Shown: piece after piece, positions 25,845-34,039 of the stretch
How the letters are laid out: every line of letters starts with the position of its first letter
How positions within the stretch are numbered: position 1 is the stretch's first letter
Origin: Branchiostoma floridae
Lineage: Eukaryota; Chordata; Leptocardii; Amphioxiformes; Branchiostomatidae
Direction: 5' to 3'
DNA length: 64,000 nucleotides
Assembly: GCF_000003815.2 (NCBI RefSeq)
Contig: NC_049985.1
Coordinates: forward strand, 4,740,234-4,804,233
Notes under the pieces: model-generated
The model's database searches: none
What the model saw: only the letters and a program-made list of their open reading frames with translations
Told to the model about the DNA's origin: nothing
Position numbers and translations under genes: made by a program

Positions 25845-26460
25845 CTCGGCACTTCTCGGTATTGTTCAGGGCGATGAGACTAGAGTACATAATGCGGGAC
25901 TGAATCATAATACCTGTAGTCATGAAGGCAACCTTGGTTTGCTCAATGCCAAAAACCCGGTCTAATGTGTACATAGTGTAATAATCCGGCTCAGTCTTAG
26001 TGTTTTATGTTTTGCAATTTGCACATTTAGTTCATCTTTTTGAAGGCGAATCTTTTCATCTTTTTGGACCTTCACTACTACTAGTATACTTCATGTACTT
26101 CTAGTACAACAGTAACTAGGGCCACTTTTGTCGATTGGAGATTCCCAATGTATTGCTACTCATCTGGCTATTTTATGGCTCTAAAGCCCGTTGTAGCCAA
26201 ACTTTCCGGAGAGAGGTGACTACGAAGTGTGCATGTCCTTCGACGGTATTGTTCAGAGTGATCAAACTAAAGTACATAATACGGGACTGCATCACAATAC
26301 ATGTCATTATGTACCCAACCATGGTGTTGCTCAAGGTCACAAACCTGTAGCGTGTAAGAATCCGGCTCAGTCTGAGTGTTTTTGTAACATCTAGTTCATC
26401 TTTCTGGAGGCGAATCGTTACTCTCACTACTAACGTTACAACGCGCCTTCTACTCCTAAG
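25845..26460 (-). repeat. Two diverged copies of a coding-like segment
   Basis: The segments 25851-26063 and 26233-26420 share, on the minus strand, IRLQKDEL, KTLRLSRI and MIQSRIMYSSLIALNNT or MQSRIMYFSLITLNNT. Frames are interrupted in the first copy. A faint likeness to the end of a seven-transmembrane receptor is only an impression. I treat them as tandem pseudogene fragments upstream of the SRCR gene. Confidence 0.4.
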
Positions 26461-26559: not shown

Positions 26560-28283
26560 ATCACGAGCAGAGAGAAGTGACGACGAGGTGACCTCTAACG
26601 TTTTACCTGTCCATCCCAGAACACAGTATTTATCCGTGACTCCCGGGGCCAATGTTGGTAAATAATAATAGTGTGGCAAAACGAAATCTTGAACGCCTTT
26701 TTTTTTTAATTCTGACGTGAACTCAAAACAGAAACTGTCTTGTAAAGTAAACTAGACAAATAACCGTCCTAGACCGTATGAATTGGAAAGTGAAGTTTGC
26801 CCAGTCGGCGTAGAAATGGGCGCGATTATCTGAACTGTCTGTCGGGGTGCGTCGACTGCAGTTCCGCTGACCTCCACTGGACGATACCTAAAAGACGGCC
26901 TCAATCGCCAATCAAATCAAATCTTTTCAATGATTCATGACTGTAAAGTTGAACATACTCGTTTTCCGTACTTTCCGTAGTTCCGTACTCTCGTGTATCC
27001 TGTTATAATTTCAACCGGTTCGATGTCAGTCTACTCTTTGTGATTCTTAACCATGTAAATCTCCGTTGGCAAAATATTGTGTTCTGCTCTCTTAAGTCCG
27101 CTACGACAACGCGTCTTTGTATTTTCGGATCATGTCTTCATCCTTTAAAATCCTTCTCCCCCCGGACGCATGGAGACTAATCCACATAGGCTCTTTGTCG
27201 TTCTCGGTTGCGGTTCTGTGTTTCTTCTGCCCCTAACAGCGTTTACATTGGGTCTATACGGTATAATCCTGTGGCGATAGACGGAGGCGCTGACTGGCCT
27301 CATGACGTATAGCAGCTGTGATAACTCTTCGGAGGTATCGGGACATTCGGCACCCGGACGGGTCGGGCCCTAGCTGGTAAGGATGTTTCGGCACCAGGTC
27401 CGGGACGTCTAGGGTTATGGTCAGTATTACGGTTAGGGTAAAGGTTAGAGTTAGAATTAGGGTTAGGGTTGAGTTAGAATCAGTCCAAACTCATTGTGTT
27501 TGACCATTCGTTTATTGAACTTCTTTGACTGCTAGTGATTGTAAATGATGGTGCACATGGAATCCTACTTAGCTACATTTGTACCAAGACTTATGCTCTC
27601 TACCGTAAAAATCAAATTCCACATCTGAACTGAAGTACAGAAACAAGGAGGTTGAAAGACCCCTCCCCCTGACAGAACGAAGTCAATGTGAGTATTCAGG
27701 TGGTCTCGTTCTCAGGTTTTCACCAGTACCCATAAGCGTTTCGGTGAGACCATCATGCTCTCTCACCTTGTACCCACTTTGACTTCTCCTCTGCTGACAT
27801 GCCGGACTGACACATTACGAAACAAGCGTGGACTTTTTCAATCTGATCTAACATCTTTCATTAATTTTTCATCTTACCCTTTGGGCAGTCACCTACAACT
27901 AGCACGTGTGCCATTCTAAAGGAACGTTACAGACGAGCATTTTTGACTACGGATATCAGATAAACGTTGAACAAAAAACATCTATCAGACTAAAGTGAAA
28001 GATACAGGTATAGGAAAAGACCAGATTTAAGGTTAACATTTCTCATTGTTAAAAAAGAGGAACTTTCATCGATCATTGAAAAACGAGGGAGTATAATTTC
28101 AGTTACGTTTGGGACAGCATCCTGCTTATCGCTGCAATGCTACAATGCGGCCAGGAGTGGCAGAGTTCGTTGCACCTTGATAAAGGCAGCCGGAATTGAC
28201 TGCTTGTGCAGAGTGACCTTAACTTAGCATGAAAGTTACTATGTGTTGGTAAATGACAATATGAAAAAATAAACGTAACCTAC
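26560..28283. other. Intergenic, no gene seen
   Basis: No coding frame with convincing composition. The only notable stretch is a degenerate TTAGGG-like run at 27410-27480. Confidence 0.5.
27410..27480. repeat. Degenerate TTAGGG-like run
   Basis: Variants of ttaggg (ctagggtta, cggttaggg, gaattagggttagggttga) occur about seven times. This is consistent with a decayed interstitial telomere-type repeat or chance enrichment. Confidence 0.45.
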
Positions 28284-28582: not shown

Positions 28583-31500
28583 CTATCCAGAGAATTTCTG
28601 CAGCCAGTCGCGAACTTCCTCAGGTTTGTATCCGTCCGGGCCCGGGTCGCCCTGGTAGACACACACGCCGTCCAGCACGATGTACAACCTGTGGACGACA
28701 ATAATAAGCAATGTAAGATCTCAAACATCAGTCAAATATTTTGCAAAAATGAATTTGTAAACCTCTGCTTTTCCTTATTGGAAACTAATCGCTAATTCTG
28801 TCGGAGCGTTTTCTGCCTTCCTTTGGGACTTAACCCTTGTCATACTGAAAATTGTTTTTTGCATATCTAATCCCCTAAGCTGGTTAATTAATCATATCAG
28901 TAAAACTTGGTCGATTCTGTGCTACTGCTGTAGATTTACCTCACCAAACAATGCGGTTTGCGCTGAGGTATGCATATGCCGCATTTAGGTGAGAAATGCC
29001 CCAACCCCATAAAGATACTGGACCCACACACAGAAATCATGCATGTTTTTCCCGTATACAGTGGACGCTAGTTAATTGCACGTCGGATAAACGCACACTT
29101 CGGTCAATTGCACGGATTCCTAAATCCGGTGGTGCCGGTGCGGCCCAACTGGATAACTTCGCATTATCGCACACGCCTGTTAATTGCACGGCATTCGCTG
29201 GCAAATTGGGTGTGCAATTAAGCGACTTTCACTGTATATACAGGCTCAGCAGGACAAGGATTTTAATATCCATGCCAAGACTGCGGCAACAATTTTGGAC
29301 GTCCGGACCAGGGCCAAACCATCATGCAAGTCTCACCAGTCAGACCATCTCCGCCACTAGGTTAGGGCCAACTTTGGACCCAGGCTAGCGAGAACAAACT
29401 TGCACACACACTAAGACAAACAGGCCGAAAAATAACTTTCACGGAGCTAAGGGTAACGGTTGCATGGCAGAAATCCTTGATATCAAAATTTCCCAGTCTA
29501 TAGCGTGTAAATGTGAAGAATCACAAATCCATGAAGGCGCATTTGTGTCACTTATCCTCAATAACTTTGTCCAATTTCTACATGCAAGTTATGTAAACTA
29601 TAATGTAGCTAATTAATTCTAAGGATCAATAAAAAAAACAGCACCTCTGTCTAAGCAGACATATTTTTGGAGTTAAAAATGGTATTCAGTACTGTTTATT
29701 CTGTTCTAGTACAGATACTGGTTGGTACAGGTACAATGTACACAGTCCTACGTGTGCTTAGCGCAGGTTGCTGAATCATGGTGTGCCATTGGTATTTGCC
29801 TATCAGCCATACCCTCAGTATTAACTGGCACGTCCCATTTTAATCACATAGTTTGCTTGAGACAGAACTAAGTGCTCTAGAATAGAACACATGGTGCTCA
29901 CTCGTGTGTCAGCATCGCGCACGTTCAAACCAATAAATAGATGTATGGATCTTTTTTTTTATTTATTGGTACACATATAAGACAAGACACAGTGGTAAAT
30001 GCACTCTAGCAAAGCTAATATTAACATTACCACTAGGACATTTGAAAATAAAATAAACAAAGGACAAAACAATGTGAGATCAAATTAAATAGTAGTACAG
30101 CAGTGGGGTGGCGGATCCAACAAATAAATATATATATATACATACAAGATTTTAAAGGAAAATATTCAATCAGTTTGAAAACGGTTGGTCTGGAGTATGT
30201 ATGTCTGTGTAAGTTGCATAATATGGGTATTTGTTTCTGTTGGTAAAGTGGGTGAACCCCTGAGTAAAAGTTGAGTTAAGACTGGGTCAGACGTAGTTTT
30301 CAAATCAAGGGTTAAAAGGTCTTGAAGATTGCAGAGAAGGGTTTTTCTAAGTTGGTTGTAGTTAGGGCAGTACAATAAATAGTGGACAACGCTTTCACAT
30401 CGGGAGCCACAGCCACAGATGTATGGATTTCTTTAAATGCATTGTATTTAATGTATCCCTACAGCAAACGGTGATGTGTGCTTCTGAGGAGAGCCAAAAT
30501 CACATTACTATACGAGACAGTCAAATGTCATAAGATCGCCACATACTTAAAGTCATTCTGAACAATCAGAAAACTCCCGTTAAACCTGTGCGGTTAAGAC
30601 GATAAATTTTAGACCTACTGCCAAGGGCCTGGTCAATGTCGTCGCGCGGTTGACTTGAGGCACACTGAGGGCATCCGTCGGGACGTCGTGCTTTTGTCGT
30701 AAGAAATTCAACCTTCGTTCTACTGAAATTGTTGTCGTTGCTCCTTGTCAGCTGTTGGCTCTGTCATAGCCTCCTTGAAATTCTGCGACATGAAATTCAT
30801 AAGACGACTGTGCCGTGCCGTAACTCTTGGGGCATGCCGTTTTGCGGAAAGTGCGACCAAAATTGAAATTGGATTGCCGTTAATCTCCAAGCAGTACTAA
30901 ACACGCAAAGGTACAAAACGATCTTTATCTTTGGTCTTTATCTTTGCCAAATCTTCTCTACGCTGTCGCAGTGAAATCGCTGTTTCCAGCCGAGAGGGGG
31001 ACGCAACTCACCTGTCGGGCATTGCGGCGTAGGCGCGCACGGCGGCGTTGTCCATGGTGTCCACCAGGATGGGACAGGGGATGTCGTGCAGGGCCAGCAT
31101 CTCCGCCGCCGCCAGTCTGTCCTCCAGACGCCGGTGCTGCCGGATGTCCATGTTCCTGCTCATGACCCAGCCGTCCGTGGGGTGCGCCTCGGCCACGTAC
31201 ACCACCACGAAGTCGGCCACGGCGGCGAAGTCAGACATGATCCGCTTGACCATGTCCAACTTCGCCCGGAACGGTTGTCAGGTGTTGCTGCCGAAGCTGA
31301 TGACCAGAGGGCGGGCGGCGCGGGCGAACTGGAGCAGCCGGCAGGAGCTCCCGTCAAGCCTGACCAGGGAGGAGTCGGCGGCCTTGCCTCCCGCGGTCAC
31401 TTCAGCCTCCAGGTTTAACATCTGCGCGGCCATCCTTCCTTTCCATGAAGCAAAACTTGTCAGCTCGTAGAGAAGTTGTTGGTACTCCTCGGGCGTTTCA

Positions 31501-31691
31501 AATTCGAAGACTCCTGGAGCCACTTTCTTTGAGCCTTTCTCCATTCGAGACAAAATTTGTCGTCCGAGAGGCGGGAAGAGACATGCCGCCCTGACCAAGA
31601 CACACATTACGAGGAAAAACGGTGTTGCTAGGACATAACGCAGCAGAAACCACACTGCCCCCGACGCTCTTTTCAGGTAGACGGGGGCCAT
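28583..31691 (-). CDS. Iodothyronine deiodinase (selenoprotein), proximal copy
   Basis: Exon 1 is 31691-31012 and the terminal exon is 28688-28583. The phase-2 junction ..CCC GAC AG|G TTG TAC gives 261 residues. Deiodinases remove iodine from thyroid hormones using selenocysteine. Here Sec138 is encoded by TGA at 31280-31278 inside VISFGSNT-U-QPF, and the frame continues immediately with RAKLDMVKRIMSDFAAVADF and the family motif VYVAEAHPTDGW. The N-terminus MAPVYLKRASG is followed by a hydrophobic membrane anchor (about residues 12-36). The terminal exon encodes YIVLDGVCVYQGDPGPDGYK and ends WLQKFSG. The start ATG is the one aligned with the second copy; an upstream in-frame ATG at 31730 is less likely. 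The residues around Sec (Asn before Thr, Gln after Sec) differ from vertebrate enzymes. A 3' SECIS element is required but I could not identify it by eye. Confidence 0.9.
29059..29234. mobile_element. Tigger/pogo-like MITE with TA target site
   Basis: Termini CAGTGGACGCTAGTTAATTG and the inverted tgcaattaagcgactttcactg, each flanked by TA (29057-29058 and 29235-29236). Repeated aattgcac words lie inside. It is non-autonomous and lies in the deiodinase intron. Confidence 0.75.
30120..30425 (-). mobile_element. LINE 3' end fragment (reverse-transcriptase tail)
   Basis: The minus strand encodes PYICGCGSRCESVVHYLLYC and then PNYNQLRKTLLCNLQDLLTL up to QTNRFQTD and a stop. This is the Cys/His C-terminal signature of non-LTR ORFs, followed by an AT-rich tail. 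It lies in the deiodinase intron. Confidence 0.75.
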
Positions 31692-32469
31692 TTCACGGTG
31701 CCAGGTAATGACTGACAAAGGTGAACCCACCCTTTGGTTTAAATATTGTCGGGGTTATTTACATGTCTACAGGTACAATGTACAAAGTCCTACGTGTATT
31801 TAGCGCATATTGCTGAATCACGCTGTCATTGGTGTTTGCCAATCAGACATATATATCCTCACTAAGTACCAATTGGCACGTCAAGTGACCGCGTCCGACG
31901 AAATATTCCATTTCTAATCTCTTAGTTTTCTTGAGAGAGAACCATGTGCTCTAAAAAGAACACAAGCTTAAGGTTTTCTCTCGTATGTCAGCATCGCGAA
32001 CGTTCAAGCCAAAAACTGGGTTTAAGGATCTCTGTGACTGCATGATTGTATCTAACGTATCCCCTACAGAAAGCGATAACGTACGCGTGCAGCTCTGAGG
32101 AGAGCCAAGATCACATTACTGTAGGAACAGTTTTAAGTCACCACATACTTAAATTCATTCTGAACAATCAAATACACTCCCGTTAAACCTCTGCGGTTAA
32201 GATGATAAATTTTATAACTACTGTTAAGGGCCTGGTCAGCGTCGTCGCACGATTGACTTGAGGCACACTGAGAGCATTCGTCAGGTGCTTTCGTCGGGCA
32301 AAGTTCAGCTTGCTTTGTACGGAAATTGTTGCCGTTGCTCCTTGTCTGCGATTGGTTCTGTCATAGCCTCCTTCAAAATTCTGCGACATGAAATTCGTAA
32401 GACAGCCTACTACGATGATCATGGTCGTGCTGTAACTCTTATGTCTTGTTTTCGGCATTGGAATATGAA

Positions 32470-32530
32470 TGAATGAAGACATTTATTGTACAGTTTTGCC
32501 CGACCGAGCTAAGTACAGGTCACAACAGGT
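32470..32530 (-). mobile_element. LINE 3' tail fragment
   Basis: The plus strand reads gacatttattgtacagtttt and cgagctaagtacaggtc. A related end lies at 56318-56358 (ttttattgtacatttatgct, cgagctaagtacaggtc). Confidence 0.5.
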
Positions 32531-32772
32531 CAAGATATATACATATAAAAGTATCACAAATCTAGTCTAACACAAAAGTTCGGCTTCTTCTCGCTTCTTG
32601 GTAATGGTGAAAATATGAAGCATGGTGTAAAAGTATGATTCAAAGACAATCAAAGACGCAAAGGTACAAAACTTCGATCTTTATCTTTGGTCTTTATCTT
32701 TGCCAAATCTTTGGTAGCTCAGCAGTCGCAGAGCGATCACAGTTTCCAGCCAAGAGGGGGACGCAAACTCAC

Positions 32773-33446
32773 CTGTCGGGCATTGCGGCGTAGGCGCGCA
32801 CGGCGGCGTTGTCCATGGTGTCCACCAGGATGGGACAGGGGATGTCGTGCAGGGCCAGCACCTCCGCCGCCGCCAGTCTGTCCTCCAGACGCCGGTGCTG
32901 CCGGATGTCCATGCCTCCCCTCATGACCCAGCCGTCCGTGGGGTGCGCCTCGGCCACATACACCATCACGAAGTCGGCCACGGCGGCGAAGTCAGACATG
33001 ATCCGCTTGACCATGTCCAACTTCGCCCGGAACGGTTGTCAGGTGTTGCTGCCGAAGCTGATGACCAGAGGGCGGGCGGCCCGGGCGAACTGGAGCAGCC
33101 GGCAGGAGCTCCCGTCAAGCCTGACCAGGGAGGAGTCGGCCGCTTTGCCTCCCGCGATCACTTCAGCCTCCAGGTTTAACATCTGCGCGGCCATCCTTCC
33201 TTTCCATGAAGCAAAACTTGTCAGCTCGTAGAGAAGTTGTTGGTACTGGTCGGGCGTTCTGTAGACTCCTGGAGCGACCTTCTTTGAGGCTTTCTCCATT
33301 CGAGACAAAATCTGTCGTCTGAGAGGCGGGAAGAGCCATGCTGTCCTGACCAAGGCAGTCAGGACGAAGAAAAGGGGAGCTGCTAGGACGTTAAGTAGCA
33401 AAAACCTGACGACCCCCGACGCTCTTTTCATGTAGACGGAGGCCAT
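32773..33446 (-). CDS. Second deiodinase catalytic exon (distal copy)
   Basis: A second large exon encodes MASVYMKRASG, a membrane anchor, SRMEKASKKVAPG, the same GSNT-U-QPF site (TGA at 33041-33039, Sec136), EAHPTDGW and the same donor MPDR|GTGAGT in phase 2. Only the leader and membrane anchor differ strongly from the proximal copy. No terminal exon is visible between 32772 and 31700; the nearest compatible acceptor is that at 28688. It could therefore be an alternative first coding exon of the same locus (259 residues) or a copy without its end. Confidence 0.85.
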
Positions 33447-33527
33447 TTTTGCGGTGACAAAAGTTGCGGGGTCATTTACATGTCAACGTCCGCACGGTCA
33501 TAGTACGGTAACGGTCAGTAATGTGTC

Positions 33528-33694
33528 ATCTCCAAGCAGATCCTACGGTGGCATAAGATTGTATCAAAAACTGCCAGAGGAGTAAAGCCGGCTTAAAGAT
33601 GCGTATGCGGTGTCCGTCTGACTCCCTTTGGCCGGCTGTACTTTCTTTGCCAGCTTTGATAAGAGTTATGGCACCGTAGGATCTGCTTGGAGAT
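33528..33694. mobile_element. MITE, ATCTCCAAGCAGATCCTACGG termini
   Basis: Left terminus atctccaagcagatcctacg; the right terminus is its inverted complement ending gcttggagat. The element is 167 bp and lies just upstream of the distal deiodinase exon. Confidence 0.85.
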
Positions 33695-33817: not shown

Positions 33818-34039
33818 ACTCTCCAAGAAGAGGTTAGGCTGTGGTTGTTTTTTCAAACTTTTTTTTAGTCGTTCTTATCGGGCTTTCTATTTTGTATTGT
33901 ATCTTGTATTGTCAAAACATAACGTTTGGCTGGCGGACTTCATGTTCAAGAAACAATTCAAAGTAGAAAGCCCGATGAAAATGACTAAAAAAACAAAGAA
34001 AAACAACAACAGTCGAAGCCTAACCTCTGCCTGGAGAGT
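33818..34039. mobile_element. Hairpin MITE, ACTCTCCAAG termini
   Basis: Left arm actctccaagaagaggttag plus an inner arm tcgttcttatcgggctttct; the right arm agaaagcccgatgaaaatga and cctaacctctgcctggagag is inverted. A relative lies at 37542-37700. Confidence 0.8.

What the first reader, a model, noticed from the sequence alone, without database searches (positions are those of the whole stretch)
28583..33446. Two selenocysteine deiodinase exons, one terminal exon
Seen: exons 31691-31012 and 33446-32773 both encode an intact membrane anchor, GSNT-U-QPF and EAHPTDGW and end in the same donor at the same phase, but only one compatible terminal exon (28688-28583) is present. The duplicated segment starts at about 29.73 kb and so excludes that exon. 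Inference: the two catalytic exons may be used alternatively, with separate promoters, sharing the last exon, 3' UTR and SECIS. That would make a single selenoprotein locus with two membrane leaders.
Basis: partly seen in the sequence, partly recalled or inferred. Interest (0 to 1): 0.8.

Follow-up and report, generated by a model that had tools for sequence, protein, structure and literature searches.

The report
Two deiodinase first exons, one ending
In what looks like an amphioxus genome, a thyroid-hormone enzyme gene carries two near-complete, selenium-coding first exons in tandem, each with its own promoter-like signals, but only one final exon and one selenium-insertion signal, so the two probably share them; no RNA evidence was available.

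Summary
Two intact Sec-UGA deiodinase first exons (33446-32773 and 31691-31012, minus strand) end in the same donor and phase. The only compatible terminal exon found is 28688-28583. Its 3' UTR holds one SECIS (27766-27705; 58.5 bits with a model built only from three paralogs). No terminal exon or SECIS was found between the copies. The genome search gave five such first exons but four terminal exons; the other three genes each have one.

A clean tandem duplication made this: units 33484-31768 and 31767-29726. The distal copy keeps a promoter block found exactly twice in 513 Mb, here and upstream of a paralog. The proximal copy lacks it but has a TATA-like/Inr pair at 32-bp spacing. Most intron sequence differs by about 0.2 per site, so the copies are not mis-assembled alleles. 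The distal exon evolves under constraint (omega 0.31, p=0.02); the proximal exon is intact, but its omega (0.58) cannot be told from neutrality.

Best reading: a GCNT2/UGT1-like locus with alternative first exons sharing one terminal exon and SECIS. That both are transcribed and spliced is inferred; no RNA data could be consulted. Main rival: the proximal exon is silent.

The parts
32773..33446 (-). Distal catalytic first exon (674 nt, 224 codons + 2 nt), Sec UGA at 33041-33039
   Evidence: Pfam PF00837 when joined to terminal exon
31012..31691 (-). Proximal catalytic first exon (680 nt, 226 codons + 2 nt), Sec UGA at 31280-31278
   Evidence: Pfam PF00837 when joined
28583..28688 (-). Shared terminal coding exon (completes Arg, then LYIVLDGVCVYQGDPGPDGYKPEEVRDWLQKFSG, stop TAG)
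   Evidence: aligned to the C-terminal part of solved DIO3 4tr3
27705..27766 (-). Single SECIS element in the shared 3' UTR (ATGA ... AAA ... TGA)
   Evidence: 58.5 bits, E 2e-14 with model R1 built from three paralogs only; alignment; Rfam RF00031 itself does not hit it
33485..33541 (-). Promoter block ATCTGCTTGGA-N31-GACCGTGCGGACGTT upstream of distal exon
   Evidence: two-part pattern occurs exactly twice in the genome, here and upstream of the paralog in L026; local alignment 26.5 vs largest of 300 shuffles 19
31739..31745 (-). TATA-like TATTTAA of proximal copy (-54 from ATG)
31710..31715 (-). Initiator-like TCAGTC of proximal copy (A at -22 from ATG, 32 bp after TATA start)
   Evidence: also acceptor-like, but splicing the distal exon to it is out of frame
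31768..33484 (-). Tandem duplication unit, distal copy (U1)
29726..31767 (-). Tandem duplication unit, proximal copy (U2); starts directly after the end of U1
29950..30420 (-). Dispersed repeat in the proximal copy's intron, absent from the distal copy, so inserted after the duplication
   Evidence: 40 scored genomic matches at 92-100% including itself, of 140 candidates; gap in the copy alignment

Best explanation
This is one iodothyronine deiodinase selenoprotein locus with two alternative first exons, each encoding the membrane anchor, the selenocysteine and most of the catalytic domain. A tandem duplication copied the first exon with a short 5' flank (38 nt now in the distal, 76 nt in the proximal copy) and about 1 kb of intron, but not the terminal exon. 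Transcripts start either at the distal promoter (ancestral) or at a promoter just upstream of the proximal exon, beside the duplication junction. A distal transcript should splice 32773 to 28688 and skip the proximal exon, which lacks a useful acceptor; a proximal transcript splices 31012 to 28688. Both mRNAs then use the same last 34 residues, 3' UTR and SECIS, at the same UGA-to-SECIS distance. Shown: anatomy, duplication boundaries, a single terminal exon and SECIS, conserved distal promoter block, constraint on the distal exon. Inferred: that both promoters fire and both splices occur.
For: Five first exons but four terminal exons of this type in the genome search (a lower bound by the tool's note). 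No terminal exon between the copies and no SECIS there (best 8.4 bits unfiltered vs 58.5 for the real one). Precise tandem junction at 31768/31767. Distal promoter block found only here and at a paralog. TATA-like/Inr at 32 bp before the proximal ATG. Both reading frames, Sec codons and donors intact, with one in-frame 6-nt indel and no frame-changing one in 674 aligned exon positions, against 17 indels, 12 frame-changing, in 710 aligned intron positions (one-sided intron stretches left out). Distal omega 0.305, rejected against 1 at p=0.022, although no partner but 28688 was found for it. The terminal exon encodes the conserved end of the catalytic domain. UGA-to-SECIS distance 1198 nt for both.
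Against: No transcript evidence. Proximal omega 0.576 does not differ from 1 (p=0.39), and separate omegas fit no better than one. The window's SECIS is the most diverged of four: Rfam RF00031 does not find it, though it finds the three paralogous ones below the gathering score; its minimum-energy fold is not the SECIS fold. AATAAA signals lie in both introns on the coding strand (32487-32482, 29967-29962) and could end transcripts early. The TATA/Inr match was noticed first and scored afterwards. In the upstream comparison the proximal copy shares no promoter block with the paralogs.
Confidence: 0.62

Rival explanations
1. Only the distal exon is used. The proximal exon is a copy nested in the first intron without the ancestral promoter block; its intact frame reflects youth and gene conversion from the distal copy, and it is silent.
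For: The ancestral promoter block stays with the distal copy. Polarised changes on the proximal branch are 5 synonymous: 12 nonsynonymous, as expected without constraint. Core homogenised to 97.3% beside 80-82% in most of the intron, so conversion could keep a dead copy looking intact.
Against: Divergence of the leader has left frame, anchor and start intact, with one in-frame 6-nt indel. The proximal copy has a well-spaced TATA-like/Inr pair, density 0.005 per 60 bp. Its omega does not differ significantly from the background either.
Confidence: 0.22
2. Only the proximal exon is joined to 28688; the distal exon is an orphan that ends in its own intron (AATAAA at 32487-32482), giving no selenoprotein.
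For: The proximal exon is nearer; a polyadenylation hexamer follows the distal donor by 285 nt.
Against: Distal exon under significant constraint, keeps the ancestral promoter block and a consensus donor; without the terminal exon the conserved end of the catalytic domain is missing and no SECIS was found in reach.
Confidence: 0.08
3. The duplication is an assembly artefact (two haplotypes laid in tandem).
For: Lancelets are extremely heterozygous (1 SNP per 34 nt, passage of PMC12373286); the core identity of 97.3% is of allelic size.
Against: Divergence of 0.20-0.23 in most of the intron and 0.17 in the leader is far above 3%; the junction is a clean head-to-tail join; the protein search met this locus on one contig only.
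Confidence: 0.05
4. Both exons are used but as mutually exclusive internal exons behind a common noncoding first exon, rather than as first exons with separate promoters.
For: An acceptor-like TTTGTCAG lies 20 nt before the proximal ATG.
Against: The distal copy has no AG in the 83 nt before its ATG; the proximal motif coincides with an initiator at TATA spacing; the paralog in L024 has the same TCAGTC at -26.
Confidence: 0.03

Closest known systems
GCNT2 (IGnT) variable-first-exon cluster of vertebrates
   Different: Two first exons and one constant exon here; deiodinase, not glycosyltransferase; the constant exon also carries the SECIS that both UGA codons need; core homogenised here, whereas that paper reports no predominant conversion
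UGT1 cluster
   Same: Tandem variable first exons with specific promoters plus common downstream exons (search listing of PMC3325998; passages of PMC1885805)
   Different: Clusters of drug-metabolising enzyme exons; no selenocysteine (recalled)
Human DIO2 splice forms with different Sec codons
   Same: One deiodinase gene whose alternative forms use different Sec TGA codons (passage of PMC2874816)
   Different: Reported there as alternative splicing of one gene, not as tandem copies of a whole catalytic exon
Branchiostoma floridae deiodinase family (9 DI genes, cluster Bf.DI_a/b/c)
   Same: Same family and probably the same species; clustered duplication of DI genes described (passages of PMC3473315)
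   Different: The passages I saw describe a cluster of separate genes, not a shared terminal exon; the supplement was not read

Membership tests
Iodothyronine deiodinase | T4_deiodinase domain PF00837 over the curated cut-off | tested here: met
   207.5 (proximal) and 206.9 bits (distal), cut-off 27
Iodothyronine deiodinase | Homology to solved deiodinase catalytic domain including its C-terminal end | tested here: met
   4tr3 DIO3 2.9e-43 over residues 88-257 of the joined distal protein; the proximal was not run
Iodothyronine deiodinase | N-terminal membrane anchor | tested here: met
   Kyte-Doolittle 19-mean 2.27 and 2.48
Iodothyronine deiodinase | Deiodinase activity | not testable with these tools
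   needs enzyme assay
Selenoprotein | In-frame UGA at the conserved Sec site | tested here: met
   33041-33039 and 31280-31278
Selenoprotein | SECIS in 3' UTR, by homology to paralogous SECIS | tested here: met
   58.5 bits, E 2e-14 at 27766-27705
Selenoprotein | SECIS recognised by Rfam RF00031 | tested here: not met
   no hit at E up to 10 in 151 bases; paralogs hit at 22.6-31.6 bits, below the gathering 35
Selenoprotein | Sec actually inserted | not testable with these tools
   needs 75Se labelling or mass spectrometry
Variable-first-exon cluster (GCNT2/UGT1 kind) | Tandem homologous first exons with compatible donors and one set of constant exons | tested here: met
Variable-first-exon cluster (GCNT2/UGT1 kind) | A separate promoter before each first exon | tested here: inconclusive
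   sequence signals for each; no start-site data
Variable-first-exon cluster (GCNT2/UGT1 kind) | Transcripts joining each first exon to the constant exon | not testable with these tools
   no RNA data on hand

The most novel reading that the evidence does not exclude
A deiodinase locus built like GCNT2/UGT1, in which one shared SECIS serves two UGA-bearing catalytic first exons under different promoters, so that two membrane-anchored deiodinases with different leaders are switched by promoter choice; the first selenoprotein gene of that build, as far as my searches show.
Probability: 0.55. Interest if true: 0.6.

Novelty: new variant of a known kind. Interest (0 to 1): 0.45.

Why it matters
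A selenoprotein gene depends on a SECIS in its 3' UTR, so a partial tandem copy without that end would normally be dead. Sharing the terminal exon shows a way to multiply selenoenzymes by copying first exons alone. In a lancelet it also bears on how thyroid-hormone metabolism diversified before vertebrate DIO1-3. It could lead gene predictors to call one gene where two proteins are made.

Tried and rejected
Hidden terminal exon between the copies: whole-window minus-strand scan and blastn of 29720-27600 against 32772-31692, nothing beyond short chance pieces. Second SECIS: own rule-based folding scans (the second also listed a poor candidate at 26399), Rfam and a model from three paralogs; only 27766-27705 stands out. 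The Rfam miRNA-like hits at 33818-34039 are all below their gathering scores and sit on an inverted repeat; not taken as miRNAs. Splicing the distal exon into the acceptor-like motif before the proximal ATG gives an out-of-frame stop at the seventh codon; rejected as a fusion. Free folding of the 63-67-nt SECIS windows is not decisive (z -0.7 to -1.9). Mis-assembly rejected by divergence. A counting slip (one position too many per stretch) was mended. An 18-letter promoter pattern with one extra N matched only the paralog; the corrected two-part pattern matched both. Literature searches (open-access library) showed no paper describing shared terminal exons in deiodinases, judged from listings and, for PMC3473315, PMC8699336, PMC9856734, PMC2874816 and PMC3316567, from passages only; (selenoprotein + mutually exclusive exons + SECIS) gave 0 papers. 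One search was meant to tie the 513-Mb genome size to B. floridae; of its 7 papers I looked into two (PMC12373286, PMC12768270), which have '513' only in reference lists, so the species remains an inference.
Full report
Where it lies. The window is C7:4740234-4804233 of a 513.4-Mb, 431-contig genome. Size and deiodinase repertoire fit the lancelet Branchiostoma floridae; that is my inference, no call names the organism. The gene features below are on the minus strand.

The observation. Both exons are as described. Exon 33446-32773 and exon 31691-31012 each run from ATG through a hydrophobic anchor, GSNT-U-QPF and EAHPTDGW to GACAG|GTGAGT. Each joins in frame to 28688-28583 (cacag|GTTGTAC), giving 259 and 261 residues counting Sec, both PF00837. 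The joined distal protein aligns to solved DIO3 (4tr3, 2.9e-43) and DIO2 (9h48, 1.8e-35) through their C-terminal part. That part, encoded by the terminal exon, belongs to the thioredoxin-like fold (recalled), so a first exon alone should not make an enzyme.

How many pieces in the genome. A search with the proximal joined protein gave 23 matches, a lower bound by the tool's own note. Five are first exons of this type: two here, C1:12428651 (L024), C12:19416669 (L025) and C1:12263272 (L026). Four are terminal exons of this type: one here and one for each of the other three genes. The remaining 14 matches are other deiodinases or fragments. Counting matches that cover the Sec position and hold a TGA, I get ten (the five, plus L007, L016, L017, L018, L022); I did not align each TGA to the Sec site. 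PMC3473315 lists nine DI selenoproteins in B. floridae (passages); nine would fit if this locus was counted once, but I did not read its supplement.

No second end. Scanning the whole minus strand of the window against four terminal-exon peptides gives 193 at the known exon, 29 for the runner-up and 5 for the best place between the copies. For the SECIS I aligned the three paralogs' elements, built a model from them alone and searched the window: 27766-27705 scores 58.5 bits (2e-14); the next is 9.3. Unfiltered search of 31500-33000 gives at most 8.4 bits. The element keeps ATGA, AAA and TGA. It is nevertheless the weakest of the four: Rfam SECIS_1 finds the three paralogs at 22.6-31.6 bits, all under its gathering score of 35, and does not find this one. 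Its minimum-energy fold is not the SECIS fold.

How the pair arose. The distal unit 33484-31768 and the proximal unit 31767-29726 abut head to tail. The sequence just before the proximal unit is the copy of the unit's own intron end, and just before the distal unit the homology stops. The unit thus holds a short 5' flank (38 nt distal, 76 nt proximal), the exon and the first part of the intron, but not the terminal exon. A 0.47-kb repeat with 40 scored copies at 92-100% including itself entered the proximal intron after the duplication.

Promoters. Because the unit starts so close to the ATG, only the distal copy keeps the ancestral upstream region. A block ATCTGCTTGGA-N30-34-GACCGTGCGGACGTT occurs exactly twice in the genome: before the distal exon (33541-33485) and before the paralog in L026. 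The distal/L026 local alignment of the 150-nt flanks scores 26.5 against a maximum of 19 in 300 shuffles; proximal/L026 does not exceed shuffles (121 of 300 as good). The proximal copy instead has TATTTAA at -54 and TCAGTC with its A at -22, a 32-bp spacing. Such pairs (one TATA mismatch allowed, spacing 28-34) occur 10 times on both strands of the window, this one included, 0.005 per 60 bp. I saw the motif before scoring it. L025 has TATATAT at -44 and TCACTC (one mismatch) at -13, and L024 has TCAGTC at -26, so an initiator close to the ATG may be a family trait. The distal copy and L026 have no exact TCAKTY in the 120 nt before the ATG.

Selection and conversion. Between the copies the intron differs by 0.20 and 0.23 in two stretches of 373 and 225 aligned positions, and by 0.116 in the 112 positions next to the donor; the leader by 0.169; the core by 0.027. 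One-sided intron stretches were left out. The introns carry 17 indels in these 710 positions, 12 not multiples of three; the exons carry one, of 6 nt, in 674. Synonymous divergence is 0.275 in the leader and 0.048 in the core, so the core has been homogenised or is constrained at silent sites. The same contrast holds between genes on different chromosomes (core 0.18-0.24, leader 0.78-1.19) and between the two on C1 (0.079 and 0.354). A codon model on a fixed five-gene tree gives omega 0.305 on the distal branch (against 1: p=0.022), 0.576 on the proximal branch (p=0.39) and 0.355 elsewhere; separate omegas are not better than one (lnL -2235.21 vs -2235.58). Polarised changes are 11 synonymous to 12 nonsynonymous (distal) and 5 to 12 (proximal), with 7 unresolved left out. 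The distal exon is therefore kept as protein although its only partner found is 28688, which is the strongest indirect sign that it is spliced there. For the proximal exon the case rests on intactness and on its promoter-like signals.

How it probably works. Two transcription starts, two first exons, one terminal exon and SECIS; the UGA-to-SECIS distance is 1198 nt in both mRNAs. In a distal transcript the proximal exon should be skipped: its nearest acceptor-like motif would lead to a stop at the seventh codon. AATAAA hexamers in the introns (32487-32482 and 29967-29962) are a possible source of truncated RNAs.

Comparison. The build is that of the vertebrate GCNT2 and UGT1 clusters, where each variable first exon has its own promoter and is spliced to common exons (PMC1885805 passages; PMC3325998 listing). 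GCNT2 is especially close, with a transmembrane segment in each variable exon. Human DI2 forms that use different Sec TGA codons are a precedent for one gene serving two Sec codons (PMC2874816 passage). I found no paper on a selenoprotein of this build (searches; open-access library only). Both copies are deiodinase relatives by the tests I ran; activity, Sec insertion and transcripts remain untested.

Noticed in passing
L024, L025, L026 and window first exons: The catalytic core is far more alike at synonymous sites than the leader, even between genes on different chromosomes (core dS 0.18-0.24, leader 0.78-1.19): interlocus conversion or silent-site constraint.
   Followed up: partly
window 33860-33993: Inverted repeat (47-nt arms, 87% complementary) about 0.4 kb upstream of the distal exon, MITE-like, drawing several sub-threshold Rfam miRNA hits on both strands.
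   Followed up: no
L019, L020, L021 (C5): Three short deiodinase-like matches (residues 178-242, 48-56% identity, two with an internal TAA) on another chromosome, possibly decayed fragments or part of another gene.
   Followed up: no
L030-L031 (C15:5.76-5.78 Mb): Cluster of three TGA-bearing deiodinase-like genes on both strands, each with its own C-terminal exon match; resembles the published Bf.DI_a/b/c cluster, though the strand order I see is +,+,-.
   Followed up: partly
   Followed up: no
window 28583-27705: The 3' UTR before the SECIS is the longest of the four genes (about 0.83 kb against 0.4-0.6 kb by coordinates).
   Followed up: no
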